From the NCBI RefSeq assembly GCF_002234675.1, contig NC_019879.2, positions 5,895,325 through 5,959,324 on the forward strand: a stretch of DNA of 64,000 bases, read 5' to 3'. Numbering within the stretch: the stretch's first letter is position 1; each line of letters begins with the position of its first letter. The notes under the pieces were generated by a model. The model worked only from the letters and a program-made list of their open reading frames with translations, did not search any database and was not told where the DNA came from. This DNA is from Oryzias latipes (lineage: Eukaryota; Chordata; Actinopteri; Beloniformes; Adrianichthyidae). This document shows, one piece after another, positions 5,801 through 55,429 of the stretch. A program made the translations under genes and the position numbers.

Positions 5801-8800
5801 AGGGAAAACAGGATGTCCTGAGAAATGGATCAGATTTAGTTCTTCTTGTTACTTTTTCTCTGGAGAGTCTAAGTCCTGGGATGAAGCAAGAGAGTTCTGC
5901 AGAGCAAGAGGAGCTGATCTGGTGGTGATAAACACTGAAGGGGAAAATGTACGTTATTGTATTTTTGGTCTATTTGGATTACATCAACATTTACAAATCA
6001 ACCATAACATTTAAGCATCCGTCTGATTGGGTTTAGACAGATTCTCAATGTAATTTAGATCTTATTAAAAGACTGAAGCAACTCCCTAGAACTGTAAAAA
6101 TGTGTAAAATGGGAATCAGTATTTTGATTGTCTGATCCGCATCAGAAACCAGGTGGTTTTAACTTCTGCCAAAGAAAGTGGATTATTCAAGGAAATACTC
6201 TGGTGTGAATTAGGCCTTACAATGTAAATGTATTTATGAAGTCAACCAGGAAACCCTTTTTGTTTGCCAGAGTATTCTAAACATGTGTGTTAAGATGTTT
6301 TCCACCTTGATGTCTCTGTGGAAAATCTTTTTGTCCTGAAGGGAAATGGCTGCTTTTACTAGTTGTTTCAGGATAATCTTGGCTTCTTTTTCTCCAAACA
6401 AATCTCTACGTTCTTGAACGTGAGTCTGAAGATCCACTGCTGGCATTGGTCTCTCCAAAACCAAGATCAGCTCATGTGGCAGCACATACCAGTCTAGCAA
6501 GGCGATTGGTGCTTTGCTGCTGGCGGAGTTTGATGTTCCGCTCCTGAGTTTCAGCATCACAACCACTTCCATGGATAACTTTTTTCCCTTTTTATCCACG
6601 TGTTTGCAGCACTGGTACTTATTGGGGACGTGTTTGATGGCAACGTCCAAATGATCTGATTTGCGATAGCCAGCAAACACAGATCCGCATCCTCCTTGAC
6701 CGAGTGGATTCAGTTGCACATATTTTGCCTCAAATTTAAGCTTTGGGTTTTCTTCTTCAGCTGGAATTTCTTTTGAATCTTTTTCCCAGCGATTGTTCCA
6801 GATAGCTTGACTTTCTCTTTCTGTTATGGTCAGGAATTGAGAATGCAGATTCATCATTTAGGGAAGGAAATTCAATTCCCCTTCTTTTCTTTGTTGGTGT
6901 TGCAGATTCTTTGTCATTTTCAAACATTTTCCTTTTGGTGCATCATCTTGAAATTGAACAGTGACATTTAGTGGGTCACTGTGAAATGGAGGATTTTGAT
7001 CTTTGCTTTCAAGGAAAAGGACTTTTCTAAGAAAACTGCCCTGTTTCTGAAACATGGTTTTCAAAAATTTTTAGTAAGGAGTAAACCTGACTTGGGTTAG
7101 CACGTCTGTAAGAGCATTCGTTTGGTCATCATGATGTCATAAAGCTGTTGGTGACATACTTTGTAATGTTGCTAGGCAACATGACTCTAAGGCTTCATCA
7201 AAGGGCCCTGATGATGCCTTCATGATGTCATGTTGCTAGGCAACGGAACTTTTTTCTTAGGACAGAATAGGAATGATGCTATCACTAACACAATTCATCA
7301 GTGCTCTCCAGCTGTTCAAACAATGATAAGTCAATGTTGAAAACAGAATCAAGAAAACTATGGAACAAAAAACTTAAGGACAGAAAAGAAAATGCAAAGT
7401 AAAAAAGAACATACATTCACAGGTAAATACATGTATTGCACACAAACATTATTGCACTTCCATACTTCCTGAGGTCACTAGCAGCTTATTTTCTGAGTTA
7501 TTCCTCCTGAGTTTTCTTAAGTGTAGACGCTGGGCCTTCTCCACTGCTGCTGTGGTGTTTTCTGTCCAGGAGAGGTCCTCAGTGATCAGGTAGCAAAAAG
7601 AGTGTACCCTATCCACGCTGTCTCTATTGATGTACAGTGGGAGTCTGAAACTACGTGATCAGGCCCAATTTCCGATCATCTGATCAGATCAGAACATCTC
7701 TTGTCACTGCACTAACCTCTTTGTCTCATTTGGATAAATCAAATTTTTAGCTGACTTATCACTATAACACAGAAGTACAATGTACTACGCCGATAAGCTC
7801 GTTTTCATTCTGTTTTTGATATAGCCTTTTGTGGCAGTTTCCCCTGACTGAAACTTCACACAAGAACTCAAACATACACACACATACACATGATAAACTC
7901 AGGGACCAAGCTAATGCTGGTTGGGTGGGTGCACACAGTCAACCATTATAACATCTGAGCAAGTTCCCTGATAATGATAACACACACTGAAGGACACTCT
8001 GTTAACTCCTTTATTATTTTGGGTGGTTTGTTTGGGTTTATTATGTTTATGTATTTTAGCATGTTTTGCTGACTTGTGCCTTACCTTTTGCAGTTTCACT
8101 GCCTGGGTCAAAGGACTCGATCAAATATGGTTGTTCCACTGAAAGTTTTATTTTCTTCTTCAGTGAAGATAAGTTAGCATTGTACTGTTTGTTGAAAATG
8201 GAGGAAGAGATAATCAAATGTTTAGATGTTGTATATTCATGTTTGTATAAACTCATTGTTACTTTGGAATTGGTCCTTCTTGGAAGGCTGATCACAATTC
8301 CGGCCACTGTAAGCCTGTGAGCCACAGGAATCCTTTAAACCCCTCAATAAAATGTTGATTGACAAAAGCTTGTTTGTAAAGGATTAACTAGTTAGTTGAT
8401 GTCTATAGTCTGCTTATGGTTGTGCTGTAGCTCAAAATAAAAATAGTTTATTTAATTTTCTTTTATTATTTTTAAATGTTTTGATGATATCCTATTTGAA
8501 TTCGAATGCATTTAAATCATTAACTTCTGTTAACTTTGACATTTTGAAAGTGTTTCCTTTCTTTTTGAAAGGCTGCTGAACAGCTTTATGAGTCAAAGCA
8601 AAAGTACATTTTATTTTTTCTTTTCACACAATATTTTTACATGTTTTGCAGACTTTTCTTGTTACATTCAGAGATCAACCAGTCTGGATTGGACTGACTG
8701 ATAAAGTCCACGAGGGAACCTGGAAATGGGTAGATGGAAGTCCTCTGACTCTGACGTGAGTGTTCAGTCTGAATCAGTGCTACTAAAACACAGAGTGGGC

Positions 8801-17917: not shown

Positions 17918-18276
17918 CCCTGTTGATGCAGTCTAACATAGCAGCTGGTTACAGTGAAAAAAATTAATTAGTGACCACAACAAAAACCTGAGGTTTGTGT
18001 GTGTCAGTGATCTCATTATAATGCAGAGAAGGGGACGTAATAAATGCAAATGGGTGGGGGCAGGGCTAGTGGTTTCACAATGTGTTTATGTCATGATGTG
18101 TTATGATGTCATGACATCATAAAGTGATATGACACTTTGACACTTTATGATGTCATTAAGTGTTTTTTTCTGATGAATATCTTGTATGAATGTCATTTGA
18201 TGTCATCAAACCAGAGTTTCTATATAGACCCCAAACTTGGGAAAATCTGTCAACGATTTTAAACTTGAGGGGAGAG
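17918..18276 (+). promoter_or_regulatory. 5' flank shared by the duplicated 500-codon genes
   Basis: Homology between the two copies begins near CTGTTGATGCAGTC (17918) and continues into the ORF. The last 130 bp are rich in TGATGTCA-type half palindromes, including the perfect 18-bp ATGATGTCATGACATCAT near 18104. These resemble CRE/ATF-like sites by shape only. No TATA box is convincing. This is the likely promoter region, by position. Confidence 0.4.
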
Positions 18277-19779
18277 ATGGCCCCATTATACTTACACGAT
18301 CTGAGCACGGACTTAACGTTGCTCTTGCAGTTTGACCTGCTCAGATTTTCAGGGTCACAAAGATCACAGCTGATCAAAGGACATCCTGATGTCAAATCCA
18401 AAGAAATAATAAGAGATTTGATGTCAAAGATCGTAAACCTGATTTCAAAACATTTGCAAAATACGAATGAAGGTATGCGAACAAAGGAAGCTGTGATGGA
18501 CCTTGTCACCAGGACTCTTCCCACAGCATTCATGGAAGTCCTCCACAGCAGCAAAGACCCCACATCATCCCACGCCTGCAACACCTTGATTGTCTTAATA
18601 ACCGAGGAGGTGTTGAGGCAAAGGGAATCCAGCAACTTACAAAGCTTTTCCAATAACTTTGACTTATTCGTATCAAGCTTTTGTAAGTTACTTTGGGATC
18701 TTTGTATAAAAACAAAAAGCAAAGAAGGAACCAAGCAGCAAGCTGGCTCCACTGCGGCGGATGGGCTCACAGATGAAAAAAGTAATGCTGGAACCCAAAC
18801 ATCCCAAAAAAGGGATGATGGAAAAGCCCAGAAGGATCTGCATGCAGCCAAAGAAGCTCAAAAGGCCCTTCTTGAAAAACTGGTGGAGGATCTCATAAAA
18901 TGTACCTTCAAAAAGAGTAAAACGCCTTTAGGCCAAGAAAAGTTTGAATCCTACAGGAGGCGTCTCTTTACAAGACTCTGGAAAGAAGCAGAGACCTTGG
19001 AATGCTACATAAGTGAGAAAAACTTTGAAGGACTAAGCAAAGTCATTTATAAAAAGGTCACCGAAAGTTTAAAGATGAATGGCATTCCAATAGTCATGGC
19101 TATGGATCTGGAGGATCAGATACATGACAACCTTGTTGCAGCCATCTTTAAACAAAGCCTTTTGACGAAAAAGGTTGTCTGCAGAGACCTCAACAGCTGC
19201 CCAAAGATGACTTCTGCTCGGAAAAAACAAGTTGCTGCAATGCAGACATGTAACGGCAAGAAAAAGACAGATGAACAGAAGTCAATCTTAAAATCAGTCC
19301 TTCCAGAAACGTCCACAAGTAAATCTTGGTCAACCCAAACCTCTGTGGACATAAACCTCCTGTCACCTGAGGAACTAGACATTCTAGAGGCCAAGATGGA
19401 AAATTGCAACACCTTGTTAAACGAGTACCTCACATTTGCAATTCCTTACATCTTCAGAAAAGCAGGTTATACATGTTCCAAGAGTAACTTTCAACTGCTT
19501 TTCAAAAGGCTGTATGATGTCCTGTGGGAAATGTGCAAAGCTTATGGTTTCAATTTGGCAAATGACAAACTCAAAGGCCTGGAAAAAGTGACGTACATGA
19601 ATTTGATCAATTTCTGTAAATATCCAGAAAGTGTAACTCTCATGTGCATGAACTTGGACCAGTCTGTGTGTGACTTTGTCGTGGCCAAAACCTTTGAAAA
19701 GCACATTCTGAAAAAGAGGTCTAAGTTTGCAAGGTTTATCTCAAAAATTGAGATAGGCGTCAACAGGGTGTTTTACTAA
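18277..19779 (+). CDS. Uncharacterised intronless 500-residue protein, copy 1
   Basis: The open frame could start at 18190, but the second copy has a 1-base deletion there. The first start usable in both copies is the ATG at 18277 (GAGATGG, purine at -3, G at +4), giving 500 residues. No signal peptide or membrane segment. Three related helical units are visible: about residues 101-147, 174-299 and 353-481. Shared marks are (A/N)CNTL in units 1 and 3, F-x4-5 then (R/C)L or KL then LW (Trp at 140, 235, 417), and in units 2 and 3 L(E/K)GL.KV.Y, a M.L(E/D) turn, and (V/A)A..F...LL/IL.KK. Ser/Thr/Lys-rich linkers containing TQTS precede units 2 and 3. I do not recognise the family and propose no function. 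Against copy 2 there are 7 replacements and about 15 synonymous changes (by eye), indicating selection on the protein. Confidence 0.8.
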   Translation: MAPLYLHDLSTDLTLLLQFDLLRFSGSQRSQLIKGHPDVKSKEIIRDLMSKIVNLISKHLQNTNEGMRTKEAVMDLVTRTLPTAFMEVLHSSKDPTSSHACNTLIVLITEEVLRQRESSNLQSFSNNFDLFVSSFCKLLWDLCIKTKSKEGTKQQAGSTAADGLTDEKSNAGTQTSQKRDDGKAQKDLHAAKEAQKALLEKLVEDLIKCTFKKSKTPLGQEKFESYRRRLFTRLWKEAETLECYISEKNFEGLSKVIYKKVTESLKMNGIPIVMAMDLEDQIHDNLVAAIFKQSLLTKKVVCRDLNSCPKMTSARKKQVAAMQTCNGKKKTDEQKSILKSVLPETSTSKSWSTQTSVDINLLSPEELDILEAKMENCNTLLNEYLTFAIPYIFRKAGYTCSKSNFQLLFKRLYDVLWEMCKAYGFNLANDKLKGLEKVTYMNLINFCKYPESVTLMCMNLDQSVCDFVVAKTFEKHILKKRSKFARFISKIEIGVNRVFY

Positions 19780-20910
19780 GGGAAGTGAACCCTAGTAGGT
19801 TAGTTAATATTAGTTTAGTGTTTTAGAAGGTTTTCTCCTAAAAATGGAAGAAAACCTTTAGTAGGATCCTGTTCTGTTCTTTGTTCTATTAAAAGGAAAA
19901 AAATAAAAAAAACAATGTCAACATTTCATTTAGTTTAGTATTTTTAGTTGTTTTTTAGTGAGTAGGTCTTACTTCAAAGGGTTAGGGTTAGCAGTACTCT
20001 GATGTTGGTTTTATTTGGCCGCAAGAAGTTAGTAGTGGGACTCTTTCTAATTCCAATTTGATTGTAAAATATATTTAGAAGGATCTGCATTTCCAGAAAA
20101 AAAGGAAGGTTTGAAATCCTGCTGAATGAAATGAAACTTGAATAATAATTGGCAAAACAATAAAGAAAGAAATTATCAAAGTTGACTGTAAATAAATTGA
20201 AAACAGCACAATAACAAAAATATATATTTGGGAAAAATCCCAGAGCCGGGTCTTGAACCAGCGAAAAATTGTGAATTTGAGAACAAAGAATTCCCCTAAA
20301 AAACAATAAAATAAAACTAAATACTTGGTCTTTGAACATCACAGAATGACCAAAAGTCTTAGATGGAAAAAGCTGCAACAGCTGAACATGGCTAATATTG
20401 AATGATTAAAACAGCTGAAAAATTGTAGAATGACTTAAGCACCAAAAACTGCCAGAAGATGCTATAATAAAGAAAGAAACTAAGGAGCTGAATATCCAGG
20501 AGAAAATGCAGGGTTGAATGTTATATTGCTGAATGAAAAATTAAGTTGACCATAGATGAAATCAAAATATCACAATAACAAAAAAATATATTTGGGAAAA
20601 ATCCCAGAGCCGGGTCTCGAACCAGCGAGATGCTGCACAAAGGAGCCAAAAGTCCTGGAAATCCTGGAATATCTTGAAAAGTTCAAGGATTTCAAGGCCC
20701 AAAATCGTAGCAGGAAAAAGCTAAAAGAGCTGAACATTTTATTAGTTAAATGGTTAAAATAGCTGAAAGGAGTTAAGAGCCGAAAAACGAAACAGGAAAA
20801 CAATTGGTTGAAAGCTGTATAGCATTCAACCAATTGTGGTCTTTTGATTATTGTGGGAGATACATTCAAAAAACAACATACAAAATGTCAAATCTGCAAA
20901 GTAGTCATCT
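19780..20910. repeat. 3' flank of copy 1 with about 365-bp repeated modules
   Basis: Matches the flank of copy 2 for several hundred bp. Two modules start near 20222 and 20590 with TTTGGGAAAAATCCCAGAGC. On the - strand each contains GGTTCGAGACC or a variant, which fits the pol III B-box pattern, so these may be tRNA-derived. No coding signal. Confidence 0.55.
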
Positions 20911-20913
20911 TAA

Positions 20914-21102
20914 CCCTTTGTGCTATCTTAGATGACCCCACCCTTACATTGACGCGTCTCCCTACCATGACAAAAGTGGATAAAGGTGGAAAGATTTCAT
21001 GTCATCCATGGACACCAGTGAAGATCACAAATCATTGAAGAAAAAAGGTTCAGAGCACTGTCTAGTAACTCCCAATGTTAAAGTGCCTAGGATAGCACAA
21101 GG
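20914..21102 (-). mobile_element. piggyBac-like MITE, copy D (reverse)
   Basis: Reverse orientation relative to copy A, with TTAA at 20910-20913 on the left. The right side ends GATAGCACAAGG followed by TATA rather than TTAA. The central GGGTCTAGATGACCC part is deleted. Confidence 0.78.
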
Positions 21103-21430
21103 TATACTTGTAACACTTTTCAAGTGAGGGAACACTGTACACAGTAAAAGAGAAAAGAAAAAAGAGACAATAAGCAACCAGAAGAAGGTAGTATCTTATG
21201 CTTTCATGTGCTGGTCCCAAGTCCAGATAAATGCAGAGGGTTGTCAGATACGACTTATTAACAATCTGAAATCAACCATGCTGTTGATGCAGTCTACTAG
21301 AGGGCTGCATTGGAATCAGGTCCCGCGGGACCCAACCCAAATCTTGCGGGAGCGGGCGGTTAGAATTGTGCCGCGGGCGGAAATAAAAAACACTGCGGGA
21401 TAAGGAAGGAGCAGGTTGCCTGGCTAAAAA

Positions 21431-23425
21431 ATGTCAATTGATGAAGCAGAAAAGAACCTCAAAGTAGGTATTTACAGCACAAAAGCGAAACAAGGAAAGT
21501 CTGACATTTGGAGGACTTTCTCGATAGTTTGTGATGAGGATGGAAAGGAGCTGGACTTTGTTCGTCGTGACAAATGTGGTAAAATGCTCATCTTCAATGG
21601 GCACAAATCCGGCACGTCTGGGTTGAGGTGACACACCTGTGTTTGTTCTCCCCGGTCAAAGTAAGCTGGTTTTTAAGGATAAACATCTCCCTACGCACAT
21701 TAAGCAAGAAACTACAGAAAAATGTGTGGAAATGTGCTGTCTAGACATAAGGCCATATGACTTTGTCGCCGGGAAAGGCTTTGTTAATATATCACAACAC
21801 TTTGTTAATGCCGCCGATAAATGAGGCAAATTTGACGTTAAAGATGTTTTACCTCATCCAACCACTGTATCCAGACATGTCGAAGGGCGTGCCCAAGTTC
21901 TGCAGGCGTCAGTGGCAGCGGAGATAAAACCTATCATTGATACGTATGGATGTGCCATCACAACCGATATATGGATGGAGGATTATCATAAAACTTCCTT
22001 CAAATCCGGCACCATCCATTATACAAATAACAACTTCTACCTTGTTTCCAGGGTGTTATTCGCGGCTCCTTTTGAGAGTGGTGTGTCAAAGACAGGGGAG
22101 ACTATCAGGAGCCTGCTGTTCCAGAAACTCCGTGAATTTGGAATAGATGTATCACTCCTATCTGGCCGTGTTGTGTTCGTCACTGACCGTGGAGCCAACA
22201 TAGCTGCTGCCCTGCGCGGATACACCAGACTGAACTGTAACGCACACCTGAACGTCACCCTATCAAGTGCATTTGCGCCAGACGTGTTGGCTGAAAGTAC
22301 TGAGCTGTCCGAACTGTTGACCAGTGCAAAAAAACCTGGTGAAATATTTCAAACATTCCGGTCTTCAAAACAGCTTAAAAAAATCCCTTAAGCAATCCAT
22401 CGAGACACGATGGAATTCAAATAATGAAATGCTGGATTCCATACTGCAACAGCATGAGAAGATCTCCACAATACTGCTTAGAAATAACCAGTATGAAAGA
22501 ATTGCACAGCTCAATGCAAACACGTTAAAAACAGTAGTTGTGTTCCTTAAGTTATTCAAGGAAGCTACGAATGACTTAGAGTCCGACAACTCCACTCCCA
22601 GCGCAGCACTTCCACTGCCGTGGTCCGTGAAACTCATTGAACACTGCCAAGCAGCAACGCTCGAGCCCTTGCTCTCTGGAGTCGCCAAGCTATGTGCCTC
22701 GCATCTGGAAGAACTGATGGGTACCAGTGACACATCTGTATCACCTCTCCACATGATGTACAGAATTGCAACGCTCCTGACTCCTAAAATGCAAATGCTA
22801 GGGATGCTGCCCCCAGATGAAAAAGATGAAGTGGGTAAAGGTGGGCTATATGTAACCTATTACAGATATAAACTAAACACAGTGCAATGACAATAGAATA
22901 AGTGAAAAGCAGTTTAAAAAAAAGAAACGCAGATAAAAGACAATGAATTAATAAAAAATCTAATGAGCCATTTTCAAAATACATATTAATTTTTATATTA
23001 ATCAAATCCTATCCAAAGGTCCAAAGGAAATGATCCAGAAGATGCACTTTCACCTGGACACAGCCACAGCAGAGGATGGGCCACCAGCCAAAAGGCAAAG
23101 CACAGACTGTTTTGGAGACTGGGAAGACGATGTGTCCGTTGCTTCAGTGCCAAAGCTGATGGATGATGTAATGGCTAAATATCTCAGCTCCTGGCTCTCT
23201 GATAACCCAGACCCAGACAGCGTGCTTCAATGGTGGAAGTTCAACAAAGAGCACTTCCCGGCGCTCTCAAAGCTGGCACGTTTCATCTTTAGTATCCCTG
23301 CATTCAGTGCGCCTTCAGAGCGGGCCTTTAGTGTCTGTGGGCGCATCTTGGAAGAGAGACGCACAGGATTGGGACCGCAGTCGATCAGCAACATTCTCTT
23401 CCTCCACAGCAACATTGCAAAGTGA
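21431..23425 (+). pseudogene. hAT transposase, full length but disrupted
   Basis: The fragments line up in order: an N-terminal zinc-finger-like region (21431-21631, DIWRTF and RRDKCGKML); then from 21639 DIRPYDFVAGKGF and HPTTVSRHV; the catalytic-domain pieces AITTDIWMED, VTDRGANI and LNCNAHLNV; then ETRWNS (hAT RW motif) after a frameshift near 22340; and the C-terminal dimerisation block SAPSERAFSVCGRILEERRT (23300s) with NILFLHSN. A TGA interrupts at 21822. A GT-AG intron of about 184 nt (22835-23018) would join DEKDEV to PKEMIQKM in frame, as some hAT genes have introns. At least two frameshifts and one nonsense codon make it inactive. Confidence 0.85.
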
Positions 23426-24282
23426 TTCATTTGTTAAATTCATTAGTTAACGTTGTTTATTTTATGTTATTTATGAGTGTTGTTTTTTTCAGCACAGTCC
23501 CTCGATGCCAAGAGGCGTGATGATGCCAGTATTATTGAGCAGGCTGCCTAAGTTTAAATGTTTTTATTCTTATTTGTATTTTTTAAACAGAATACCTGCA
23601 ACATTTGGCTAATAATTATAAAACTGTTGTTTTTCATGTAGCCTAATTCATCATATTATGTATATTTTTTTGTAAAGCAGTCTATTTTTATGTTCAAAGT
23701 TTTTGATAAAACGGAATTATGTTTGAATGTATTGTGTGTTTGTCTTTTTTTTACATGCAGGCCAGGGAAACGAATCAAACAACCCAAAAACCTCCTTTCA
23801 TTAATTTGGGCTTTGTCTGTGGAGCTTAAAGTCCTGTTGAACCATTACAATGTTTTTTTCCTCGATAAATTCAAATGACTTTGACCTGCATCTTTACCAG
23901 CTGGTTCAGCGCGCTTTAGGCCGTCTGTCTGCGCGCGGACACACGCACACACGGAGGGACAATTTTTAAAGATATATTAAAGATCATATTTTACAGCAAA
24001 AGCAAAATCCCATCCCTCTGAGCTGTCACAACTCAGAAGTCATCAAGTCTACGCGTCCGTGAGCTGCTGCTGAATGGAGAGAAATGAAAGAAGGTGTAAA
24101 GAGCAAACATGAAGAAGAGTTTTCTTCTCTTTCACCGTTTCAGAGCAAAGCTGCAGGCTGACCTTCAAACTCTCCGTGAATCCAAACCGAAGGCAGAACC
24201 TCCTCCAAAACCATCAGAACCAGAAAGCTAAACTCCATCAGAACCTCCCTGAGCGAGGAGCACCCACTTTCCCTATGGCAAA

Positions 24283-24328
24283 AACATCTGGGAACGTGTG
24301 ACCGTCAGTGAACACGTTCCCAGATGTT
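24283..24328. repeat. Perfect 17-bp inverted repeat in the hAT 3' region
   Basis: Arms AACATCTGGGAACGTGT (24283-24299) and complement (24312-24328), 12-base loop, inside the non-coding 3' part of the hAT element. It may be a transposase-related subterminal structure or the remains of a nested insertion. Confidence 0.75.
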
Positions 24329-24830
24329 ATATTTAATATTAAGTTGCACATTACACAAAAGAGGAATGCATGAAAAGATGAGGCTGGAGGAGGGACATGA
24401 AGCTCTTAAATAATGTCAACACAAATACGTGTTTTTTTCCTGGGGGAAGAGAGACAATACAAAATCAATGCATCTCAATTACTGTGCGAGAATATATTCT
24501 CAGAGTTTTGCGGGTGCGGGTGAGAGTGGACATACATATTGCGGGTGCGGGTGGGAGTATAACGCATACGTTGCAGGAGCGGGCGGGATTGGTCAAAATT
24601 CGGCGGTTGCGGGCGGGAGCGGGATGAAGGAAATAGTCCCGCGTAGGGCTCTACAGTCTACCATAGCAGCTGATTACAGTGAAAAAATTTAATTAGTGAC
24701 CAAAACAAAAACCTGAGGTTTGTGTGTGTCAGTGATCTCATTATGATGCAGAGAAGGGCCGTAATAAATGCGAGTGGGTGGGGGCAGGGCTAGTGTTTTC
24801 ACAATGTGTTTATGTCACGATGTGTTTACG

Positions 24831-24865
24831 TGACGCTTTATGATGTCTGACATCATAAAGCGTCA
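24831..24865. repeat. Near-perfect 35-bp palindrome upstream of copy 2
   Basis: Arms TGACGCTTTATGATGTC (24831-24847) and exact complement (24849-24865) around one T. It lies in the likely promoter region of copy 2. The matching region of copy 1 has a shorter 18-bp palindrome. Confidence 0.75.
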
Positions 24866-25096
24866 TTTATGATGTGTTAATGATGTGTTTACGTTATGAT
24901 GTCATGATTTTTTTTATTTATGACACTTTGACACTTTATGATGTCATGATTTTTTTTAATGACACTTTATGATCTCATTAAGTGTTTTTTCTGCTGCATT
25001 TCTGGTATGAATGTCATTTGATGTCATCAAACAGAGTTTCTATATAGACCCCAAACTTGGGAAAATCTGTCAACGATTTTAAACTTGAGGGGAGAG

Positions 25097-26599
25097 ATGG
25101 CCCCATTATACTTAAACGATCTGAGCACAGACTTAACGTTGCTCTTGCAGTTTGACCTGCTCAGATTTTCAGGGTCACAAAGATCACAGCTGATCAAAGG
25201 ACATCCTGATGTCAAATCCAAAGAAATAATAAGAGATTTGATGTCAAAGATCGTAAACCTGATTTCAAAACATTTGCAAAATACGAATGAAGGTATGCGA
25301 ACAAAGGAAGCCGTCATGGACCTTGTCACCAGGACTCTTCCCACAGCATTCATGGAAGTCCTCCACAGCAGCAAAGACCCCACATCATCCCACGCCTGCA
25401 ACACCTTGATTGTCTTAATAACCGAGGAGGTGTTGAGGCAAAGGGAATCCAGCAACTTACAAAGCTTTTCCAATAACTTTGATTTAATTGTATCAAGCTT
25501 TTGTAAGTTACTTGGGGATCTTTGTATAAAAACAAAATGCAAAGAAGGAACCAAGCAGCAAGCTGGCTCCACTGCGGCGGATGGGCTCACAGCTGAAAAA
25601 AGTAATGCTGGAACCCAAACATCCCAAAAAAGGGATGATGGAAAAGCCCAGAAGGATCTGCATGCAGCCAAAGAAGCTCAAAAGGCCCTTCTTGAAAAAC
25701 TGGTGGAGGATCTCATAAAATGTACCTTCAAAAAGAGTAAAACGCCTTTAGGCCAAGAAAAGTTTGAATCCTACAGGAGGCGTCTCTTTACAAGACTCTG
25801 GAAAGAAGCAGAGACCTTGGAATGCTACATAAGTGAGAAAAACTTTGAAGGACTAAGCAAAGTCATTTATAAAAAGGTCACAGAAAGTTTAAAGATGAAT
25901 GGCATTCCAATAGTCATGGCTATGGATCTGGAGGATCAAATACATGACAACCTTGTTGCAGCCATCTTTAAACAAAGCCTTTTGACAAAAAAGGTTGTCT
26001 GCAGAGACCTCAACAGCTGCCCAAAGATGACTTCTGCTCGGAAAAAACAAGTTGCTGCAATGCAGACATGCAACGGCAAGAAAAAGACAGATGAACAGAA
26101 GTCAATCTTAAAATCAGTCCTTCCAGAAACGTCCACAAGTAAATCTTGGTCAACCCAAACCTCTGTGGACATAAACCTCCTGTCACCTGAGGAATTAGAC
26201 ATTCTAGAGGCCAAGATGGAAAATTGCAACACCTTGTTAAACGAGTACCTCACATTTGCAATTCCTTACGTCTTCAGAAAAGCAGGTTATACATGTTCCA
26301 AGAGTAACTTTCAACTGCTTTTCAAAAGGCTGTATGATGTCCTGTGGGAAATGTGCAAGGCTTATGGTTTCAATTTGGCAAATGACAAACTAAAAGGCCT
26401 GGAAAAAGTGACGTACATGAATTTGATCAATTTCTGTAAATATCCAGAAAGTGTAACTCTCATGTGCATGAACTTGGACCAGTCTGTGTGTGACTTTGTC
26501 GTGGCTAAAACCTTTGAAAAGCACATTCTGAAAAAGAGATCTAAGTTTGTAAGGTTTATCTCAAAAATTGAGATAGGTGTCAACAGGGTGTTTTATTAA
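25097..26599 (+). CDS. Uncharacterised intronless 500-residue protein, copy 2
   Basis: Same length and reading frame as the gene at 18277-19779, starting at the shared ATG. The frame upstream of this ATG is shifted by a single missing C near 25031, so the longer start possible in copy 1 is not available. Replacements relative to copy 1 are His to Asn, Phe to Ile, Trp to Gly (residue 140), Ser to Cys, Asp to Ala, Ile to Val and Ala to Val. The Trp to Gly change hits a position conserved as LW in all three internal units, so copy 2 is the derived state there and its first unit may be weakened. The other two units are unchanged at their key residues. No intron. The function is unknown; it may be a host gene family or a domesticated or mobile-element protein whose element ends I could not define. 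Confidence 0.8.
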   Translation: MAPLYLNDLSTDLTLLLQFDLLRFSGSQRSQLIKGHPDVKSKEIIRDLMSKIVNLISKHLQNTNEGMRTKEAVMDLVTRTLPTAFMEVLHSSKDPTSSHACNTLIVLITEEVLRQRESSNLQSFSNNFDLIVSSFCKLLGDLCIKTKCKEGTKQQAGSTAADGLTAEKSNAGTQTSQKRDDGKAQKDLHAAKEAQKALLEKLVEDLIKCTFKKSKTPLGQEKFESYRRRLFTRLWKEAETLECYISEKNFEGLSKVIYKKVTESLKMNGIPIVMAMDLEDQIHDNLVAAIFKQSLLTKKVVCRDLNSCPKMTSARKKQVAAMQTCNGKKKTDEQKSILKSVLPETSTSKSWSTQTSVDINLLSPEELDILEAKMENCNTLLNEYLTFAIPYVFRKAGYTCSKSNFQLLFKRLYDVLWEMCKAYGFNLANDKLKGLEKVTYMNLINFCKYPESVTLMCMNLDQSVCDFVVAKTFEKHILKKRSKFVRFISKIEIGVNRVFY

Positions 26600-27690
26600 G
26601 GGAAGTGAACCCTAGTAGGTTAGTTAATATTAGTTTAGTGTTTTAGAAGGTTTTCTCCTAAAAATGGAGGAAACCTTTAGTAGGATCCTGTTCTGTTCTT
26701 TGTTCTATTAAAAGGAAAAAATAAAAATAAAAAAACAACATCAACATTTCATTTGGTTAAGTATTTTTAGTTGTTTTTTAGTGAGTAGGTATTACTTCAA
26801 AGGGTTGGGGTTAGCAGTACTCTGATGTTGGTTTTTATTTGGCCCCAAGAAGTTAGTAGTGGGACTCTTCTCAAATTGCATCACATGACCACCCTTTGGA
26901 CTCTTTCTAATTCCAATTTGATTGTAAAATATATTTAGAAGGATCTGCATTTCCAGAAGAAAATGCAGGGTTGAAATCCTGCTGAATGAAAATGAAACTT
27001 GAATAATAATTGGCAAAACAATAAAGAAAGAAATTATCAAAGTTGACTGTAAATAAATTGAAAACAGCACATTAAAAAAATATATATATTTAGGAAAAAA
27101 GCCAGAGCCCGGTCTCGATCCAGTGAGCTTCTGCACCAAGGATTCCCCATGTATTTCAAAGGAGCCAAAAATCCTGGAATAATTTGAAAATTTTGAGGAT
27201 TAGAAGGACCAAAAGTCATAGATGAAAATTTTAATATTTGAATGATTAAAACAGCTAAAAAATTGTGGAAAGAGTTAAGCACCAAAAACTGGCAGAAGAT
27301 ACTATAATAAAGAAAGAAACTAAGGAGCTGCATTTCCAGGAGAAAATCCAGGATTTAATGCTATATTGTTGATTGAAAAATTAAGTTGATCATAGATTAA
27401 GTCAAAACAGCACAATAACAAAAACTATATATTTGGGAAAAATCCCAGAACCGGGTCTCGAATCAGCGAGCCACATGATAAATTACAGTGGGTTTTTCTT
27501 TTATCACGCATACCAAAGTTACACAGCTTTGGTAACGTGTAATAAAATGAAAAAGAAAAACACAGGACGTTCCTAAAAACATGCTCAAGAATTACTGAAA
27601 AATTGGGAATTTGGGAACAAAAAATTCCCAAAAAAACAACAATAAAATTAAACTAGATACTTGGTCTTTGAACATCCCATTCCTGGGACA
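26600..27690. repeat. 3' flank of copy 2 with repeated modules
   Basis: Matches the copy 1 flank but carries an extra piece (about 26872-26902) and a different module order. B-box-like modules lie near 27093 and 27436, about 345 bp apart. A TACCAAAGTTACACAGCTTTGG hairpin-like spot lies near 27510-27535. No coding signal. 27690-27944 holds nothing I can name. Confidence 0.5.
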
Positions 27691-28493: not shown

Positions 28494-29390
28494 CAACCCG
28501 GTCTCATCCTAAAATGTGTAGTAGCTACATTTGTCCATATGGAAATGCGTGAGAGTTTTACAAAAACGCCCCCTAAACTGTGAGGGGGATACGTTTCATT
28601 TTTCTATTCATTTTCTACGAGCCTTCTCAGGATCACGTGACTTTGGAGGTTTGGCCTGCCGTGAGCAAAAAACATGGTGGATGCACGTTCATTTTTCGGT
28701 GGAATATCCCATAAAACAAGATATTTTGAGGACTAATTTTTATTTTGACAACATTTCTAGTGAGAAATATACCATTTTCTTTTAAAATATGCTTTCATTT
28801 TGGACATACAGTTTGTAGTTTGCTTGTTTCGTTCAACTTTTTCTCCCAAAGGCTCTGTTACGTTGGAGAAACACGTTAACTTTCATTCATATCTGCAGAC
28901 GTGCGCGTGGGTCACGTGACTAATATGATTCTCTTTTTTTCCGCAGAAAATGCCATAAAATAAGAGTGATTGTGGACTAATTTATTTTTGAAAACATTTC
29001 TAGCAGTATATATCCCCTTTATTTTCTTAATATTGCAGACATGAAGTTGTTTGTTTGTTACGTTCAACTTTTCCTCAAAGGATCTGAAAGCGTCTGATCT
29101 TTTCCATTCATATATGCGGGCTGACGTGGGTCACGTGACGTGCCTTTCTCTTTTTTTCCTGTGGAAAATCTCGTAAAAAGGTACGTTGCGATTTACTAAT
29201 TTGTTTTATTTACATTTCTAGGAACCCGTGTATAGGTTTTCTCGTTCCGTGTTGCTCTTGCGGCGATCAGGCTTTGATTGACATGTGACAACAAACCGGG
29301 AAAATGTTGAGTTCAGGGACGGACCAAAGAGTTCTTTAAATTGATTTTTCTGCATTTTAATTTATTTACACTACGAGTCTAATGGTGTGT
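28494..29390 (+). repeat. Left inverted-repeat arm with tandem subterminal modules
   Basis: Built from three diverged modules of about 200 bp. Each contains a TCACGTGA core (near 28634, 28913 and 29131), then TTCTCTTTTTT, then a TAAAA-rich stretch, then ACTAATTT and ACATTTCTAG. TCACGTGA is self-complementary. Confidence 0.8.
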
Positions 29391-44110: not shown

Positions 44111-45035
44111 TGTACACAGCATTTAGACTTGTAGTGTGAATACTTTAACATGTAAAAGAATATTGAATAAAATAAATCGCTAAGTAAATTTAGAGAACTC
44201 TCCAGTCCGTTCCTGAACAACATTCTTCCGGTTTGTTTAAATGTCCTTCAAAGTCGCAACTACTACACAGCATGAAACCTATACACGGGTCCGTAGAAAT
44301 GTAAATAAAAATAATTAATAAATAGCAACGTACCTTTTTACGAGATCTTCTATATGAAAAAAGAGAAACTCAGGTCACGTCACGTGACCCACGTCAATCC
44401 GCATATATTTATGGAAAAGATCAAACGCCTTCAGATCCTTTGAGGAAAAGTTGAACGTAACAAACAAACTACGAACTGCATGTCTGCAATGAATGGATAT
44501 TATGAAAATAAAGGGGATATATACTGCTAGAAATGTTTTCAAAAATAAATTAGTCCACAATCACTCCTATTTTATTGCATTTTCTGCGGAAAAAAGAGAA
44601 ACATATTAGTCACGTGACCCACGCGCACGTCTGCAGATATGAATGAAAGTTAACGTGTTTCTCCAACGTAACAGAGCCTTTGGGAGAAAAAGTTGAACGA
44701 AACAAGCAAACTACAAACTGTATGTCCAAAATGAAAACATATTTTAAAAGAAAATGGTATATTTCTCACTAGAAATGTTGTCAAAATAAAAATTAGTCCT
44801 CAAAATATCTTGTTTTATGGGATATTCCACCGAAAAATGAACGTGCATCCGCCATGTTTTTTGCTCACGGCAGGCCAAACCTCCAAAGTCACGTGATCCT
44901 GAGAAGGCTCGTAGAAAATGAATAGAAAAATGAAACGTATCCCCCTCACAGTTTAGGGGGCGTTTTTGTAAAACTCTCACGCATTTCCATGTGGACAAAT
45001 GTAGCTACTACACATTTTAGGATGAGACCGGGTTG
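44111..45035 (-). repeat. Right inverted-repeat arm
   Basis: Reverse complement of the left arm, ending with the same terminus and sharing its modules (CACGTGA cores near 44382, 44612 and 44890). A fourth, more diverged module lies just inside at about 43975-44110. Small insertions and deletions relative to the left arm increase inwards. Confidence 0.8.
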
Positions 45036-45594: not shown

Positions 45595-46915
45595 TGTTAC
45601 ACCCCTAATACCCACCTATTGTAAAAGTCAAACCGGCGGTTGCCCCGGCCGGTTGGCTGCCTCAGTCCCGTTCGAGGCCTGACCAGAGCTCTTCCAGGGC
45701 CGGCGCTTGGGGGTGGGGGCTGCTTGGCAGTGGTCCCCCTCCCATGGTTGCCGTATGGAATGGACCCCCCTCTTTCAGTTTTATTTGCACCTTAGACATG
45801 TAGGGCCCTTGGTAGGGGGGGTGCTTGGACATCACTGCCAGCAAGCAGCAGATGTCCTCCTAGCACCTTCCCGCCAATTTTAACCGCACCTTAGACATTT
45901 ACGGCCCCTTGGTGGGGAGGGTGAGGGGACATCACTGTGAGTAAGCAGATGTCCCCTCAGTGCCCTACCCGCCAATTTTAACTGCACCCCCGTAGTACAC
46001 ACACCTTTACTCCTCAAAATATACATTCAAACATAAACACACACACACATGCACACACACACCCTCACAAACACACACAAACGCACACACATTTTGCAAG
46101 GAAGATGGTACCTAGGACCATCTGTCCCCTACCCCATCCCTGGTGGGGGGTACGGGGCCCTTGGTAACGGAGGCCGTGTCCCATGGGTGCCGGTTTCCTG
46201 GGCCCGGCGGTGCTCTCTCCGCGCGGGGAGGGGGTTCACATTACACCTGAGCCGGGGGTGTCCGTATCCCTGTGGGGTGGGTTCTGGTCCTTGCCCCTGA
46301 GCGCTGGGCCCCGCCAAATTTCCAACTGTGGCCGAGCCTGGTCGGGCCATGTTTACAACACCCCTTGTGAGCCCCCCTTTTCCCCGGGTTGCTCCCCTCC
46401 TGGGCGGGAGCGGCCGGCCCCTGCCTTGCTCATTCCTGGACCAACCGTGGGCCGGGTGGGTGGCTGCCTGGAGTGCGGAGTGGGTCTTTCTTGGGGGGTC
46501 CTGGCTCGTACCTGGGGTTGGGGCGGGGGATGCTCAGAACACCTGGGTGGTGATGGGGTGCTCGTCTGGGGCTGTGGGCGCCCTTCTCGGATGGGGCCCT
46601 GCGTTGGGCCCACCCGGCGCAGCGGAGGGGGCTGCTCTCCTGGTTGGGCTGAGGCAGCACTCTCTTTCCCCCCATGCCTCCCTGCTCTCTGGTTCTGGGG
46701 GCCTCGCGGCAGTCCTGCTGGCCCTGGCCTGGGTGGCCGATGTGGTCGCCCGAGGGGCGGTTGTTCCCTGCCTGCTGCCGTGTGGCGTTGGGGGGTTCCG
46801 GCTGCCGCTGCGGCGGGGGTCTTGGTGTGGGGATGGCTGGGCACTCTCCCTCCTTCTTTTCACATTCCACCATCCATTTTAGGAGAACATAAACACTCAC
46901 CTGAGAACAGGTCTT
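45595..46915 (+). other. GC-rich segment, no convincing gene
   Basis: A sharp rise in GC content, strongest at 46120-46860, with G-rich runs such as GGGGTGGGGGC on +. It creates long open frames on both strands (244, 184, 163 and 156 codons), all low complexity in Gly, Pro, Arg and Ala with no domain. An imperfect repeat of about 120 bp is seen at 45775-45975 (CACCTTAGACAT, GGGCCCTTGGT, GACATCACTG twice). It may be a GC-rich fish repeat; 45043-45594 before it holds nothing named. Confidence 0.45.
46021..46092 (+). repeat. CA-rich microsatellite
   Basis: Imperfect CA repeats (ACACACACACATGCACACAC and similar) just upstream of the GC-rich core. Confidence 0.75.
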
Positions 46916-47621
46916 AGCTCACCTTTGCACTAATAGTTTGCATGATTGAATGAATGAAATATTTCACACTAGTTGGTTTGAAGGCATAAATAAGTATGCG
47001 TGTGTGAACACTTTCTGTTTTGTGTACATGTAGACATGTGGACTTTTTTGCAGCTAGCAGGTGTGTTGATAACATTTGAGTGTGTGTGTGGACAGACCCC
47101 GACCTATGAGATTTGTACTACATTTGAACCTTACCGTAATGATAAACAACCAGTAAACTTGTTGCTCTATGCTGCTTCATGGTCTTAAAAAATGCATTTA
47201 AAAATCTTAAATTTGACACATCGGAAAAATTTAGACATGTTGGTAGAATATTATATAGGAGTTTTCAATACAAAAAACCACAGTGAAGATCTATGAATGT
47301 CGTAGAAGAAGCAGGAAGGCATGTGAGAGATAAAACAGCAGATGACAGAATGAAAACATTTTGCTGTAAGAGAAAGCTAATTATGTGGCTTTATGCTTTT
47401 ACTTCAGTGCGATAAATATTAAATAACATTTGTAAATGTTTTTTAGGCCTCAGTGCTTCATTTGACCCACTTGATCAAAATGTCTCTATTAGGTAACATT
47501 ATTAGGCAGCATAGCATAATAAATAAAAAAATAAAAAATTTCACTATCTGGCAATTTCACAACTTCAATAAAAAACTGGTGGAACAGGCAACGACCACAG
47601 GTCAGATGAGGATTTGTTTTA

Positions 47622-47968
47622 CAGTGGGACAAAAAAGTCTTTAGTTATCCACCAATTGTGAAAGTCCTCCCACATAAAAAGGTGAGAGGTGGTCTGTAAT
47701 TTTCATCATAAGTAAACATCAACTATGAGAGACATAAAGAGAAAATCCTATTGTCTGATATTTAAAGAATGCATTTGAAAATTATGGTGGAAAAAATGTA
47801 TCTTGAAAGAAGCAAGATTTCTGGTTTCACAGACCTGTAACTTCTTCTGTAAGAGGATCCTCAGTCCTCCACTCGTTACCTGTATTAATGGGACCTGTTT
47901 GAACTGGTTATCTATATAATAAACAACCACAAACTTCAAACAGTCACACTCCAAACTCCACTATGGCT
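47622..47968 (+). mobile_element. Tc1-like transposon 5' end
   Basis: Starts CAGTGGGACAAAAAAGTCT, continues CCACCAATTGTGAAAGTCC and TTTCATCATAAGTAAACA, and ends at CACTCCAAACTCCACTATGG, the leader and start codon of a widespread Tc1 family of fish and frogs. The rest of the transposase is missing. Confidence 0.72.
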
Positions 47969-48220
47969 AACAAATCAGTCTCTCTAATGTTTTATCATTA
48001 AAAACAAGAGAAGTTAAACTTTGTTGTTCATTTTTTCTCTGTGAAGATCTGGCTTTATGCACCCATTTTGTACAGTCTATTCCTGCATGTTGGGTAATAA
48101 TGTTTAATATTTTCTCTGCACCTTTACTCTTATAGTCTGTTAGTTAACTGCACTTGTTCTACCATCTATTCTGTGAGTAAGTCACTGATAAAGTTTTTAT
48201 TTTGGCCTGACTTCTTTCAG

Positions 48221-48356
48221 ATGGTGATTCAGTAAGATATTTGTCAGAAATCTCTGACAGCAAAGACAATTTGACTGAGCATCTGAATGCTGTTACTGAG
48301 AGGATGAATTCCAGTATCATTGAAAAAAAAAGAGAACCTGATGGACTAAAAACAGA
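48221..48356 (+). pseudogene. Duplicate lectin stalk exon with 1-base insertion
   Basis: Acceptor TTTCAG and donor GTAAGT are kept, and the first 30 codons match the exon at 2680-2814. An A-rich run near 48322-48332 adds one net base (136 versus 135 nt), which would shift the frame into the next exon. Either a pseudogene exon or an assembly error beside the gap. Confidence 0.7.
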
Positions 48357-48468
48357 GTAAGTTTTAAAATTCTGTATTAAAATGTACATTTGTGAAGATG
48401 CAGCTATACCATGTAGCATACAAATGGATTATCTAAAAGAAAATGAAAAAAGAAGTAAACAAAAAGAA

Positions 48469-49468
48469 NNNNNNNNNNNNNNNNNNNNNNNNNNNNNNNN
48501 NNNNNNNNNNNNNNNNNNNNNNNNNNNNNNNNNNNNNNNNNNNNNNNNNNNNNNNNNNNNNNNNNNNNNNNNNNNNNNNNNNNNNNNNNNNNNNNNNNNN
48601 NNNNNNNNNNNNNNNNNNNNNNNNNNNNNNNNNNNNNNNNNNNNNNNNNNNNNNNNNNNNNNNNNNNNNNNNNNNNNNNNNNNNNNNNNNNNNNNNNNNN
48701 NNNNNNNNNNNNNNNNNNNNNNNNNNNNNNNNNNNNNNNNNNNNNNNNNNNNNNNNNNNNNNNNNNNNNNNNNNNNNNNNNNNNNNNNNNNNNNNNNNNN
48801 NNNNNNNNNNNNNNNNNNNNNNNNNNNNNNNNNNNNNNNNNNNNNNNNNNNNNNNNNNNNNNNNNNNNNNNNNNNNNNNNNNNNNNNNNNNNNNNNNNNN
48901 NNNNNNNNNNNNNNNNNNNNNNNNNNNNNNNNNNNNNNNNNNNNNNNNNNNNNNNNNNNNNNNNNNNNNNNNNNNNNNNNNNNNNNNNNNNNNNNNNNNN
49001 NNNNNNNNNNNNNNNNNNNNNNNNNNNNNNNNNNNNNNNNNNNNNNNNNNNNNNNNNNNNNNNNNNNNNNNNNNNNNNNNNNNNNNNNNNNNNNNNNNNN
49101 NNNNNNNNNNNNNNNNNNNNNNNNNNNNNNNNNNNNNNNNNNNNNNNNNNNNNNNNNNNNNNNNNNNNNNNNNNNNNNNNNNNNNNNNNNNNNNNNNNNN
49201 NNNNNNNNNNNNNNNNNNNNNNNNNNNNNNNNNNNNNNNNNNNNNNNNNNNNNNNNNNNNNNNNNNNNNNNNNNNNNNNNNNNNNNNNNNNNNNNNNNNN
49301 NNNNNNNNNNNNNNNNNNNNNNNNNNNNNNNNNNNNNNNNNNNNNNNNNNNNNNNNNNNNNNNNNNNNNNNNNNNNNNNNNNNNNNNNNNNNNNNNNNNN
49401 NNNNNNNNNNNNNNNNNNNNNNNNNNNNNNNNNNNNNNNNNNNNNNNNNNNNNNNNNNNNNNNNNNNN
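48469..49468. other. Assembly gap of 1000 N
   Basis: Exactly 1000 N, probably a placeholder length. The expected lectin-domain exon 1 of the duplicate would fall here. Confidence 0.97.
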
Positions 49469-49690
49469 TTCTCGTCAGTGTGTCCGTCTGGCGGAGCAGA
49501 TATAGGTGCGGGCGTGCGGACGGACGGACAGATGTACTAATTGTCCACTGGGGAAAGTTGTTTTCATATTAAAACATTTCTTCATAAGCTATGGAATTAT
49601 GGTATTCATGCATATGCCTTTAGTTTGTTTTATTTTTGATAAAACAATGTCTGACGCAAATCCTACGCAAAGTTTTATAAATGAGGCCCC
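49469..49690 (-). mobile_element. PIF/Harbinger derivative, copy 3 (partial, reverse)
   Basis: Runs from the gap to the terminus AAATGAGGCCCC. Read on -, the 45-bp end is joined directly to sequence equivalent to 4799 onward in copy 1, skipping both gene fragments. It is therefore a shorter deletion derivative. The other end is in the gap. Confidence 0.75.
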
Positions 49691-53183: not shown

Positions 53184-54329
53184 TAAAAACTCTCCAAGAT
53201 GAATGTGCCTGACTCCACCTGCAGGTGGATCACAGACTTCCTGACGGACAGACAGCAGTATGTGAGGCTGGGGAAGCTCGTCTCAGATACTCGGACCACA
53301 AGCACCGGATCCCCCCAGGGCTGTGTCCTTTCACCCCTGTTACTCTCCCTGTACACAAACAGCTGCACAGCTGGTCACCTGTCTGTCAAACTCCTGAAGT
53401 TTGCTGACGACACCACACTCATCGGCCTCATCTCTGACGGAGATGAGTCGGCCTACAGGAGTGAAATAGCCAGGCTGGTGTCATAGTGCAGCGCTAACAA
53501 CCTGGAGCTTAATGCTCTGAAGACAGTGGAGATGACAGTGGACTTCAGGAAGGCCCCAGCCCCCCTCCCCCCTGTCATCCTCTGTGACTCCCCGGTGACC
53601 TCTGTGGAGTCCTTCTGCTTCCTGGGAACCATCATCAGCCAGGACCTCAAGTGGGAGCAGAACATCAGCTCCATCACTAAGAAGGTCCAGCAGAGGATGT
53701 ACTTCCTGAGGCAGCTGAAGAAGTTTCACCTCCCTGAAAAGATGCTGGTAGACTTTTACACCGCCATCATCGAATCCACCCTCACGTCCTCCATCACAGT
53801 CTGGTTCGCTGCGGCCACGGCCAGAGACAAGGCCAAGCTGCAACGCGTCATCCACTCAGCAGAGAAGGTGATCGGCTGCCACCTCCCGTCTCTCCAGGAG
53901 CTGCACATCTCCAGGACCTGGAGGCGGGCAGCCAGGATTGTAGCCAACCCCTCTCATCCAGGACATAATCTCTTTCGGCCCCTCCCTTCTGGCAAGAGGC
54001 TCCGGTCCATCAGGACCAGGACCTCGCGCCACAAGAACAGCTTCTTCCCCACTGCAGCCAGCCTGCTGAACAGTACCCCAACTCCCCCAGGTGACCCCCC
54101 CTCCCCCCCGCCCACCAAAGGACTGTCGGTGCCACTTACAGGCCCCACCATCCCAGCCCATCTGTGCTCCCACTTTAATTCACCTTACTCTACTGTATAT
54201 AGTGTGTTGTTGTTGTTAACTTAATTTTTAACTTATTCTTAATTGCACTATACACCAAGTCAAATTCCTCGTTTTGTAAAGTGCGCTCTACTGAACCTGG
54301 CAATAAAACTTTTTCTGATTTCTGATTCT
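53184..54329 (+). mobile_element. 5'-truncated L2/CR1-type LINE
   Basis: A truncated reverse transcriptase, a 3' untranslated part (AATTGCACTATACACCAAG) and a terminal AATAAA plus TTTCTGATTTCTGATTCT microsatellite tail. It is inserted where units 2 and 3 read straight through (CATCCTT(T/A)GCACTAATCA). Confidence 0.82.
53199..54110 (+). pseudogene. Reverse transcriptase, C-terminal half
   Basis: The frame opens inside the palm (WITDFLTDRQQYVRLG, GSPQGCVLSPLLLSLY) and contains the catalytic FADDTTLIGLI at about 53398. One TAG at 53484-53486 replaces the Trp of the family's LVSWCS. The same frame then continues through ESFCFLGTIISQDLKW, SITVWFAAATARDKAKLQR and SIRTRTSRHKNSFFPTAASL, the usual C-terminus. 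In this family the enzyme copies element RNA at nicked target DNA. The 5' truncation and the stop make this copy inactive, but it is otherwise well preserved, so it is fairly young. Confidence 0.85.
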
Positions 54330-54881: not shown

Positions 54882-55429
54882 TCTATACATCCAATGAAAT
54901 TAAACTACAAATCAACAAACACAACTGATAACAAATGTCTCTAAAAAATGATGTGTATATTTGCAGAACCTTAAAAACACCAAACAAATAACAAATGCTT
55001 CCCAATTAAAGCACAAAAAATGGAACACAAAATGTAAAACCCAAGTTAGAAATTGCAATTTGAAAAAGATACTTTTTTCAGCAGCTTTTCAAAATCAATC
55101 ACCAATTCTACTCTTCTGTGGATGAAACAAAGAACTCCAGAACAATGAAGCCATTTCTCTAAGTCTCTCTCACCTTCAGTTTTAAACAAGGTCTGTGAAA
55201 ATCCACCATACATTGGTCACATGAACTCAGAGACCTGCTAAAAGTGCACAATTGTAAAAGCTCTTTTATATAGACAACTGTTTGTTTGCTTAGAGCTCTA
55301 AATATAAAAAAAAATGCTTTTCTATCACCTAGACACAGATGGAGAACCATATCAACTGGATTAATAACAGGGTGGCATGTTTAGACAACATGAAGCTGTC
55401 CATCACATTTTTGACCTAAACATGTAAAC

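What the first reader, a model, noticed from the sequence alone, without database searches (positions are those of the whole stretch)
18277..26599. Duplicated intact 500-codon intronless genes of unknown family
Two ORFs of identical length (18277-19779 and 25097-26599) survive in DNA where nearly every other ORF is broken. By eye they differ at about 15 synonymous and 7 replacement positions, a ratio well below neutral. I recognise no known family. This is the best candidate for an undescribed protein in the window.
Basis: partly seen in the sequence, partly recalled or inferred. Interest (0 to 1): 0.82.

Follow-up and report, generated by a model that had tools for sequence, protein, structure and literature searches.

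The report
Unknown gene family, shared promoter signal
Two intact 500-codon genes on what is probably a fish chromosome belong to a large, apparently undescribed family of single-exon genes under purifying selection, and a repeated eight-base DNA signal in front of them also sits in front of unrelated multi-copy genes, which suggests a shared on-switch.

Summary
ORFs 18277-19779 and 25097-26599 are intact and differ by 16 synonymous and 7 replacement changes, dN/dS 0.11, p=6e-7. They are not just a pair: the same genome holds 17 long open frames of the family in a first search, these two included, and about 15 more distant ones. No Pfam or PDB sequence match; no transposon domain. The protein holds two copies of a ~115-residue helical domain shared across the superfamily; in the one pair examined by part, constraint is strongest there. 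One outside public protein is an intact relative. Unexpected: all 11 subgroup representatives tested carry CRE-type octamers (TGATGTCA/TGACATCA, fewer TGACGTCA) within 400 bp upstream, 37 in total, while little else upstream aligns. Such arrays also precede unrelated single-frame genes: 7 of 9 loci looked at, a partly biased sample without matched control. Best reading: real, lineage-amplified intronless genes under a common CRE-type promoter, probably active in germ cells. Expression is untested. A hAT element (3,356 bp) separates the two copies.

The parts
18277..19779 (+). Copy 1: 500-aa single-frame ORF
25097..26599 (+). Copy 2: 500-aa single-frame ORF, 98.5% identical DNA
18104..18205 (.). 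Four TGATGTCA/TGACATCA octamers upstream of copy 1 (18104, 18112, 18148, 18198)
24848..25026 (.). Four octamers upstream of copy 2 (24848, 24897, 24939, 25019)
18221..18232 (+). TATATAGACCCC of copy 1, 56 nt before the ATG
25041..25052 (+). TATATAGACCCC of copy 2, 56 nt before the ATG
18838..19185 (+). Copy 1 domain M (residues 188-303), first repeat of the helical domain
   Evidence: M against C: hhalign probability 98, E 1.4e-13
19372..19728 (+). Copy 1 domain C (residues 366-484), second repeat; predicted helical, pLDDT 82, pTM 0.78
25658..26005 (+). Copy 2 domain M
   Evidence: by position
26192..26548 (+). Copy 2 domain C
   Evidence: by position; piece used
19888..19907 (+). ATTAAA and AATAAA after copy 1 (polyadenylation-signal-like)
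26707..26731 (+). ATTAAA and AATAAA after copy 2 (polyadenylation-signal-like)
21298..24653 (.). hAT transposon, 3,356 bp, 8-bp target duplication CAGTCTAC at 21290 and 24654, inserted in the 5' flank of copy 2; not part of the gene
6234..6854 (-). Broken PIM-like kinase gene (N-terminal half) with TGATGTCA at 7132 and 7223 and two X-box-like palindromes (7168-7180, 7232-7244) upstream: possible further member of the same promoter class

Best explanation
The two ORFs are working copies of an apparently undescribed, lineage-amplified family of single-exon protein-coding genes. The protein is all-helical by prediction, probably a non-enzymatic adaptor or structural protein, built from two copies of a ~115-residue domain joined by less constrained linkers, with a further helical N-terminal region in this subgroup. 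Transcription starts from a TATA box about 55 nt before the ATG and is driven by an array of CRE-type octamers (here only the CpG-less form TGATGTCA/TGACATCA) read by a CREB/CREM/ATF-type bZIP factor; the most likely site is germ cells, testis first. Shown: intact frames, purifying selection, domain duplication, strongly enriched upstream octamers across the family, and the same octamers before some unrelated single-frame genes. Inferred: absence of introns in the transcript, the factor, the tissue and the protein's role.
For: dN/dS 0.11 between the copies; 0.47-0.50 to the C22 cluster; 0.26-0.29 at two deeper pairs whose dS is above 1.3 and so near saturation. 17 long open frames of 19 matches in the first genome search, about 15 more long open frames with the 714-aa query. 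In the C21a-C22a pair dN/dS is 0.32 and 0.28 in domains M and C. Outside relative P0003, 58% identical to the C22 12.7-Mb member and 46.8% to the window copies. Octamers: 27 within 400 bp upstream in 7 representatives, against at most 4 in any of 2,000 dinucleotide-preserving shuffles and 2 in 44.7 kb of their remaining flank; 37 CRE-type octamers, 11 of 11 representatives having at least one. With the octamers and near variants masked, 2 of 153 pairs of upstream stretches still align, against 24 unmasked. TGATGTCA is described as a functional, lower-affinity CRE variant (PMC1796609, passages). Expanded pim-like genes are male-biased in flounder (PMC12562241, passages and section 3.6).
Against: No transcript or protein evidence. 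In the C13 trio one pair has 1 synonymous and 7 replacement changes and one copy lacks the aligned start codon, so some copies may be decaying. A TATA-like string between -30 and -110 is present in 8 of 11 representatives, not in C22x, C13y or C4a; ACCC beside it in 5 of 11; neither was tested against a control. Each window ORF also carries two octamers inside its coding region, and six lie elsewhere in the window, two of them upstream of the pim-like gene. [quoted passage not shown] The flounder paper itself proposes that expanded pim genes act as pseudogene-like piRNA templates, not as proteins. The high coding identity of the C21 copies could partly reflect gene conversion.
Confidence: 0.7

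Rival explanations
1. The ORFs are the protein of a mobile element (transposon, retroelement or endogenous virus such as the medaka herpesvirus-like Teratorn), copied by transposition.
For: Multi-copy, single-frame, found on ten chromosomes, C17 only as a degenerate remnant; a hAT sits between the copies.
Against: No transposase, polymerase, gag or viral domain in Pfam scans; no close relative in viral contigs (a search that reaches close relatives only). Subfamilies differ deeply (many at 25-60% identity), show purifying selection, and copies within a subfamily mostly lie in local clusters. The hAT has its own ends and target duplication. Terminal repeats and target duplications of the gene copies themselves were not tested.
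Confidence: 0.07
2. Recently duplicated pseudogenes or chance open frames; selection is not acting now.
For: The window's hAT and pim-like frames are broken; broken family pieces exist on C17, C9 and C20; one C13 pair has a ratio above 1 on 8 changes.
Against: dN/dS 0.11 with p 6e-7 for the window pair; 500 codons open in all three C21 copies; outside relative of full length.
Confidence: 0.05
3. Real genes, but the octamer arrays are a spreading repeat or simple-sequence by-product without regulatory role.
For: Some arrays are long and regularly spaced (C3 and C1 loci); TGATGATGTCAT is partly self-similar; tandem clusters inflate the genome-wide count.
Against: In the family the sites have irregular spacing and both orientations; sequence between them is hardly shared; the nearest one begins 67-232 nt before the start codon in the seven representatives, and the rest of those flanks holds 2 in 44.7 kb.
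Confidence: 0.15
4. Real genes with the octamer promoter, but expressed in ovary or egg, early embryo or immune cells rather than testis.
For: CRE-type sites serve many tissues (recalled).
Against: Only indirect: male-biased pim-like genes in flounder and X-box-like palindromes beside the octamers of the window's pim-like gene.
Confidence: 0.35

Closest known systems
Expanded teleost pim-like kinase genes (PMC12562241; passages and section 3.6 seen)
   Same: Multi-copy, mostly open single frames in this genome; the broken one in the window has two of the same octamers upstream
   Different: Kinase domain; our protein has none and no detectable relation. Only this one, broken, pim-like promoter was looked at
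CRE-driven promoters (CREB/CREM/ATF; PMC1796609 and PMC3091680, passages seen)
   Same: CRE-type octamers close upstream, mostly several per promoter
   Different: Canonical TGACGTCA was 0 in seven representatives including the window subgroup though CpG half-sites occur in C22a; the CpG-less variant dominates, in arrays
Mammalian ampliconic, testis-expressed multi-copy gene families (recalled)
   Same: Near-identical clustered copies, lineage-specific amplification
   Different: Here spread over many chromosomes and several unrelated protein families; expression not shown
Teratorn herpesvirus-transposon of medaka (PMC5601938, passages seen)
   Same: Multi-copy, carries a pim-like gene
   Different: No viral domain found in our ORFs; no direct comparison with Teratorn genes was made

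Membership tests
Known protein family (Pfam) | Match above curated cut-off | tested here: not met
   P0001 and P0002: none at E<=10; 9 rows of A1: best E 0.045; L024 719-aa frame: none at E<=0.1
Protein with a solved relative | Sequence match in the PDB | tested here: not met
   none at E<=10; profile, best E 0.054 over 37 positions
Protein with a solved fold | Significant structural match | tested here: inconclusive
Transposable-element protein | Transposase, RT, integrase or gag domain | tested here: not met
Transposable-element protein | Terminal repeats and target duplications around each copy | not tested
   only the neighbouring hAT was examined
Viral gene | Relatives in viral contigs | tested here: inconclusive
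   none, but a single-protein query reaches close relatives only
CRE-type promoter | TGACGTCA or its TG/CA variant close upstream | tested here: met
   11 of 11 representatives within 400 bp of the ATG; a twelfth, C19, has one octamer but no placed ATG; upstream of the C20 18.2-Mb, C9, C4 29.206-Mb and C19 24.4-Mb members was not fetched
CRE-type promoter | Binding by CREB/CREM/ATF and response | not testable with these tools
   needs ChIP or reporter
Lineage-amplified multi-copy genes | Several near-identical copies with open frames under purifying selection | tested here: met
   met for C21; C22 pairs 0.20-0.34 on 2 to 9 changes; C13 and C20 pairs uninformative or above 1
Testis-expressed genes | Transcripts in testis | not testable with these tools
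   no expression data
Retrogene (processed copy) | Intron-containing parent, poly-A tail, target duplication | tested here: inconclusive
   genome searches returned mostly single long frames plus some broken or partial matches and no evident multi-exon parent; tails and duplications not tested

The most novel reading that the evidence does not exclude
A single transcription programme, read through arrays of a CpG-less CRE octamer (A)TGATGTCA(T), drives many unrelated families of single-exon, repeatedly amplified genes across this genome (this helical superfamily, a family of single-frame protein kinases, coiled-coil proteins, perhaps pim-like kinases). The array would act as an amplification-friendly promoter, and these families would be dispersed counterparts of mammalian ampliconic germline genes, possibly in genetic conflict. 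The octamer array would be a tool to list the whole set.
Probability: 0.35. Interest if true: 0.82.

Novelty: new variant of a known kind. Interest (0 to 1): 0.62.

Why it matters
A protein superfamily with about 32 long open frames in one vertebrate-sized genome and no Pfam or PDB sequence match is a sizeable gap in annotation. The shared octamer may link it to other multi-copy families and gives a direct, cheap test: one motif predicts which orphan single-exon genes are switched on together. If the tissue is the male germ line, it opens a fish system for studying rapid gene amplification and conflict.

Tried and rejected

Limits of the wider-regulon test: nine array loci were looked at. Five were chosen because they lay in tandem clusters (C2 15.49, C2 9.43, C1 31.51, C3 2.91, C7 32.44 Mb), a biased choice; four were other hits from the list (C1 0.68, C1 34.70, C1 15.30, C2 11.67 Mb). 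Seven of nine have an open frame next to the array and pointing away. Not so: C2 9.43 Mb, where only one side was seen, and C1 0.68 Mb, with two octamers and a GC-rich frame that may be an ordinary exon. The frames at C1 15.30 and C2 11.67 Mb were seen for 100 and 97 codons, that at C1 34.70 Mb for 230 and that at C3 2.91 Mb for 405 before the fetched DNA ended; at C2 15.49 Mb the frame overlaps the array and its start was not placed. No matched random loci were examined. The pattern count (265 against 64 for the reversed pattern; 100 places listed, C1 to C7) is inflated by tandem clusters: 48 of the 100 listed are on C7.
Full report
OBSERVATION. Codon by codon they differ at 15 synonymous and 7 replacement codons. 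Nei-Gojobori dS is 0.0535 and dN 0.0059, ratio 0.11, p = 6e-7 against a neutral split. The third copy, about 106 kb downstream of copy 2, gives 0.17 against copy 1 and 0.11 against copy 2.

THE FAMILY. Searching the window's own genome with copy 1 gave 19 matches. Seventeen are long open frames: three on C21, four at C22 13.67-13.71 Mb (86% identity), one at C22 12.71 Mb (48%), three at C13 22.4 Mb (32%), one at C20 4.8 Mb and five at C20 14.56-14.59 Mb (29-31%). The other two are a broken fragment on C20 and a weak match inside a 719-aa frame on C13. That frame, used as a 714-aa query, gave 44 match rows on ten chromosomes: long open frames of 353 to 1,056 codons at 15 places by my count (C13 x3, C8, C18 x3, C4 x2, C20 x2, C19 x2, C9 x2), some shorter or partly broken pieces (a further C18 place, C19, C4), degenerate remnants on C17 and C9, and weak matches to the C21 and C22 copies. 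The tool calls its counts lower bounds. C-terminal pieces fetched from ten of these places align over the same ~115-residue domain; 7 of the 10 were put into alignment A4. The distant members share a signature around LVYKDLxKxW and FKKHL; the window copies read TYMNL and FEKH there.

PROTEIN. Residues 185-305 and 365-500 of copy 1, compared as small profiles, are homologous (hhalign probability 98, E 1.4e-13): an internal duplication. The N-terminal 150 residues showed no detectable relation to either. The second domain alone was predicted with pLDDT 82, pTM 0.78 as helical. Pfam and PDB sequence searches found nothing; fold comparison was inconclusive. Between C21a and C22a dN/dS is 0.32 and 0.28 in the two domains, 0.65 in the N-terminal part, 0.40 and 0.95 in the linkers, on 10 to 39 changes per part: the duplicated domain looks like the constrained part. 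One protein from an outside public contig (P0003, 489 aa) is 58% identical to the C22 12.7-Mb member and 46.8% to the window copies, so the family seems to be kept intact elsewhere too.

SELECTION IN OTHER GROUPS. C22 near-identical pairs 0.20-0.34 on 2 to 9 changes; C21 against C22 0.47 and 0.50; deep pairs 0.29 and 0.26 with dS above 1.3; C13 pairs 0.50 and 1.76 on 6 and 8 changes, with one C13 copy lacking the aligned start codon; C20 near-identical pairs have 1 to 7 changes and say little.

NEIGHBOURHOOD. Between the two genes lies a hAT element, 21298-24653, with target duplication CAGTCTAC and a hAT dimerisation domain. It landed in the 5' flank of copy 2; copy 1 shows the corresponding uninterrupted sequence, with one base different in the target. 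At 6234-6854 on the minus strand is the N-terminal half of a PIM-like kinase; its 20 other match rows lie on C9 and C1, nearly all without stops.

PROMOTER SIGNATURE. The window copies have TATATAGACCCC 56 nt before the ATG and AATAAA within 130 nt after the stop. Upstream lies an array of TGATGTCA/TGACATCA. In representatives of seven subgroups there are 27 such octamers within 400 bp of the ATG (2 to 5 each), against at most 4 in any of 2,000 dinucleotide-preserving shuffles and 2 in 44.7 kb of their other flank; canonical TGACGTCA was 0 in these seven. In the window as a whole there are 18: 8 upstream of the two ORFs, 4 inside them, 6 elsewhere, two of these upstream of the pim-like gene. 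In four further representatives canonical TGACGTCA appears (C8, C4a, C18c) or the variant again (C18a, C18c); all 11 have one or more, 37 in total. A twelfth upstream piece (C19) has one octamer, but its ATG could not be placed and it was left out of the count. TGATGTCA is described as the functional, lower-affinity product of CpG deamination in the CRE (PMC1796609, passages), which fits a family that has drifted from canonical to CpG-less sites; the direction is inferred. A TATA-like string between -30 and -110 is present in 8 of 11 and ACCC directly beside it in 5 of 11, without a control.

BEYOND THE FAMILY. Two octamers within 30 bases (ATGATGTCATN{0,30}TGATGTCA) occur 265 times genome-wide against 64 for the reversed pattern, a figure inflated by clusters. 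Of nine such loci examined, seven have an open frame next to the array and pointing away: a 787-aa protein kinase on C1 (five copies of 99-100% identity; in four of the five a pattern hit lies exactly 249 bp before the ORF start), a 309-aa coiled-coil-like protein on C7, a 523-codon frame on C2, a coiled-coil-like frame of at least 405 codons on C3, and three frames seen only in part. None looks related to the window protein by eye; only the C1 and C7 proteins were scanned against Pfam. The window's broken pim-like gene also has two octamers, at 7132 and 7223, with X-box-like palindromes beside them (the name X-box is recalled). With octamers and near variants masked, 2 of 153 pairs of upstream stretches align, against 24 unmasked, so the arrays are not one transposed repeat.

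MECHANISM AND TISSUE. The best-supported account is a bZIP-driven promoter, often with a TATA box, that keeps its octamers while the rest turns over. The tissue is inferred: expanded teleost pim-like genes are male-biased in flounder and heavily piRNA-targeted (PMC12562241, passages and section 3.6), though that paper takes them for pseudogene-like piRNA templates; [quoted passage not shown] RFX2 papers (PMC4498915, PMC4745085) were seen in a listing only. I put testis at about one half.

AGAINST. No expression data; some copies look to be decaying (C13 trio; fragment at C20 14.596 Mb with a stop); TATA absent in some; the choice of array loci was partly biased and had no matched control. Interest is moderate to high because an unannotated superfamily with a testable common switch is useful, but the kind of thing, lineage-amplified single-exon genes, is known.

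Noticed in passing
window 21298-24653: hAT transposon with 8-bp target duplication and recognisable ends; its transposase appears split over several frames.
   Followed up: partly
window 6234-6854 (-), upstream to 7244: Broken PIM-like kinase gene with two TGATGTCA octamers and two GTTGCCTAGCAAC palindromes upstream; relatives, nearly all without stops, on C9 and C1.
   Followed up: partly
L063 (C1:31508300-31511300): 787-aa single-frame protein kinase with seven octamers upstream, five near-identical copies in the genome, and many more distant single-frame kinase relatives.
   Followed up: partly
L065, L066, L067, L069, L070, L071: Other single-frame genes or gene starts next to octamer arrays on C7, C2, C3 and C1; four of the six frames run off the fetched DNA.
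   Followed up: partly
window 54998-64000: A ~4.6-4.7-kb unit repeated head to tail; a 300-nt piece of the region occurs five times (also at 51393).
   Followed up: no
window 46168-49572: Long overlapping open frames in several frames on both strands, as expected of tandem repeats (not tested).
   Followed up: no
window 53487-54221: Open frame with an ALKBH8_N match in Pfam (E 4.9e-17), possibly the end of a retroelement reverse transcriptase (recalled).
   Followed up: no
window 28494-28939 and 44590-45035: Inverted repeat of 446 nt, 99% complementary, 15.65 kb between the arms.
   Followed up: no
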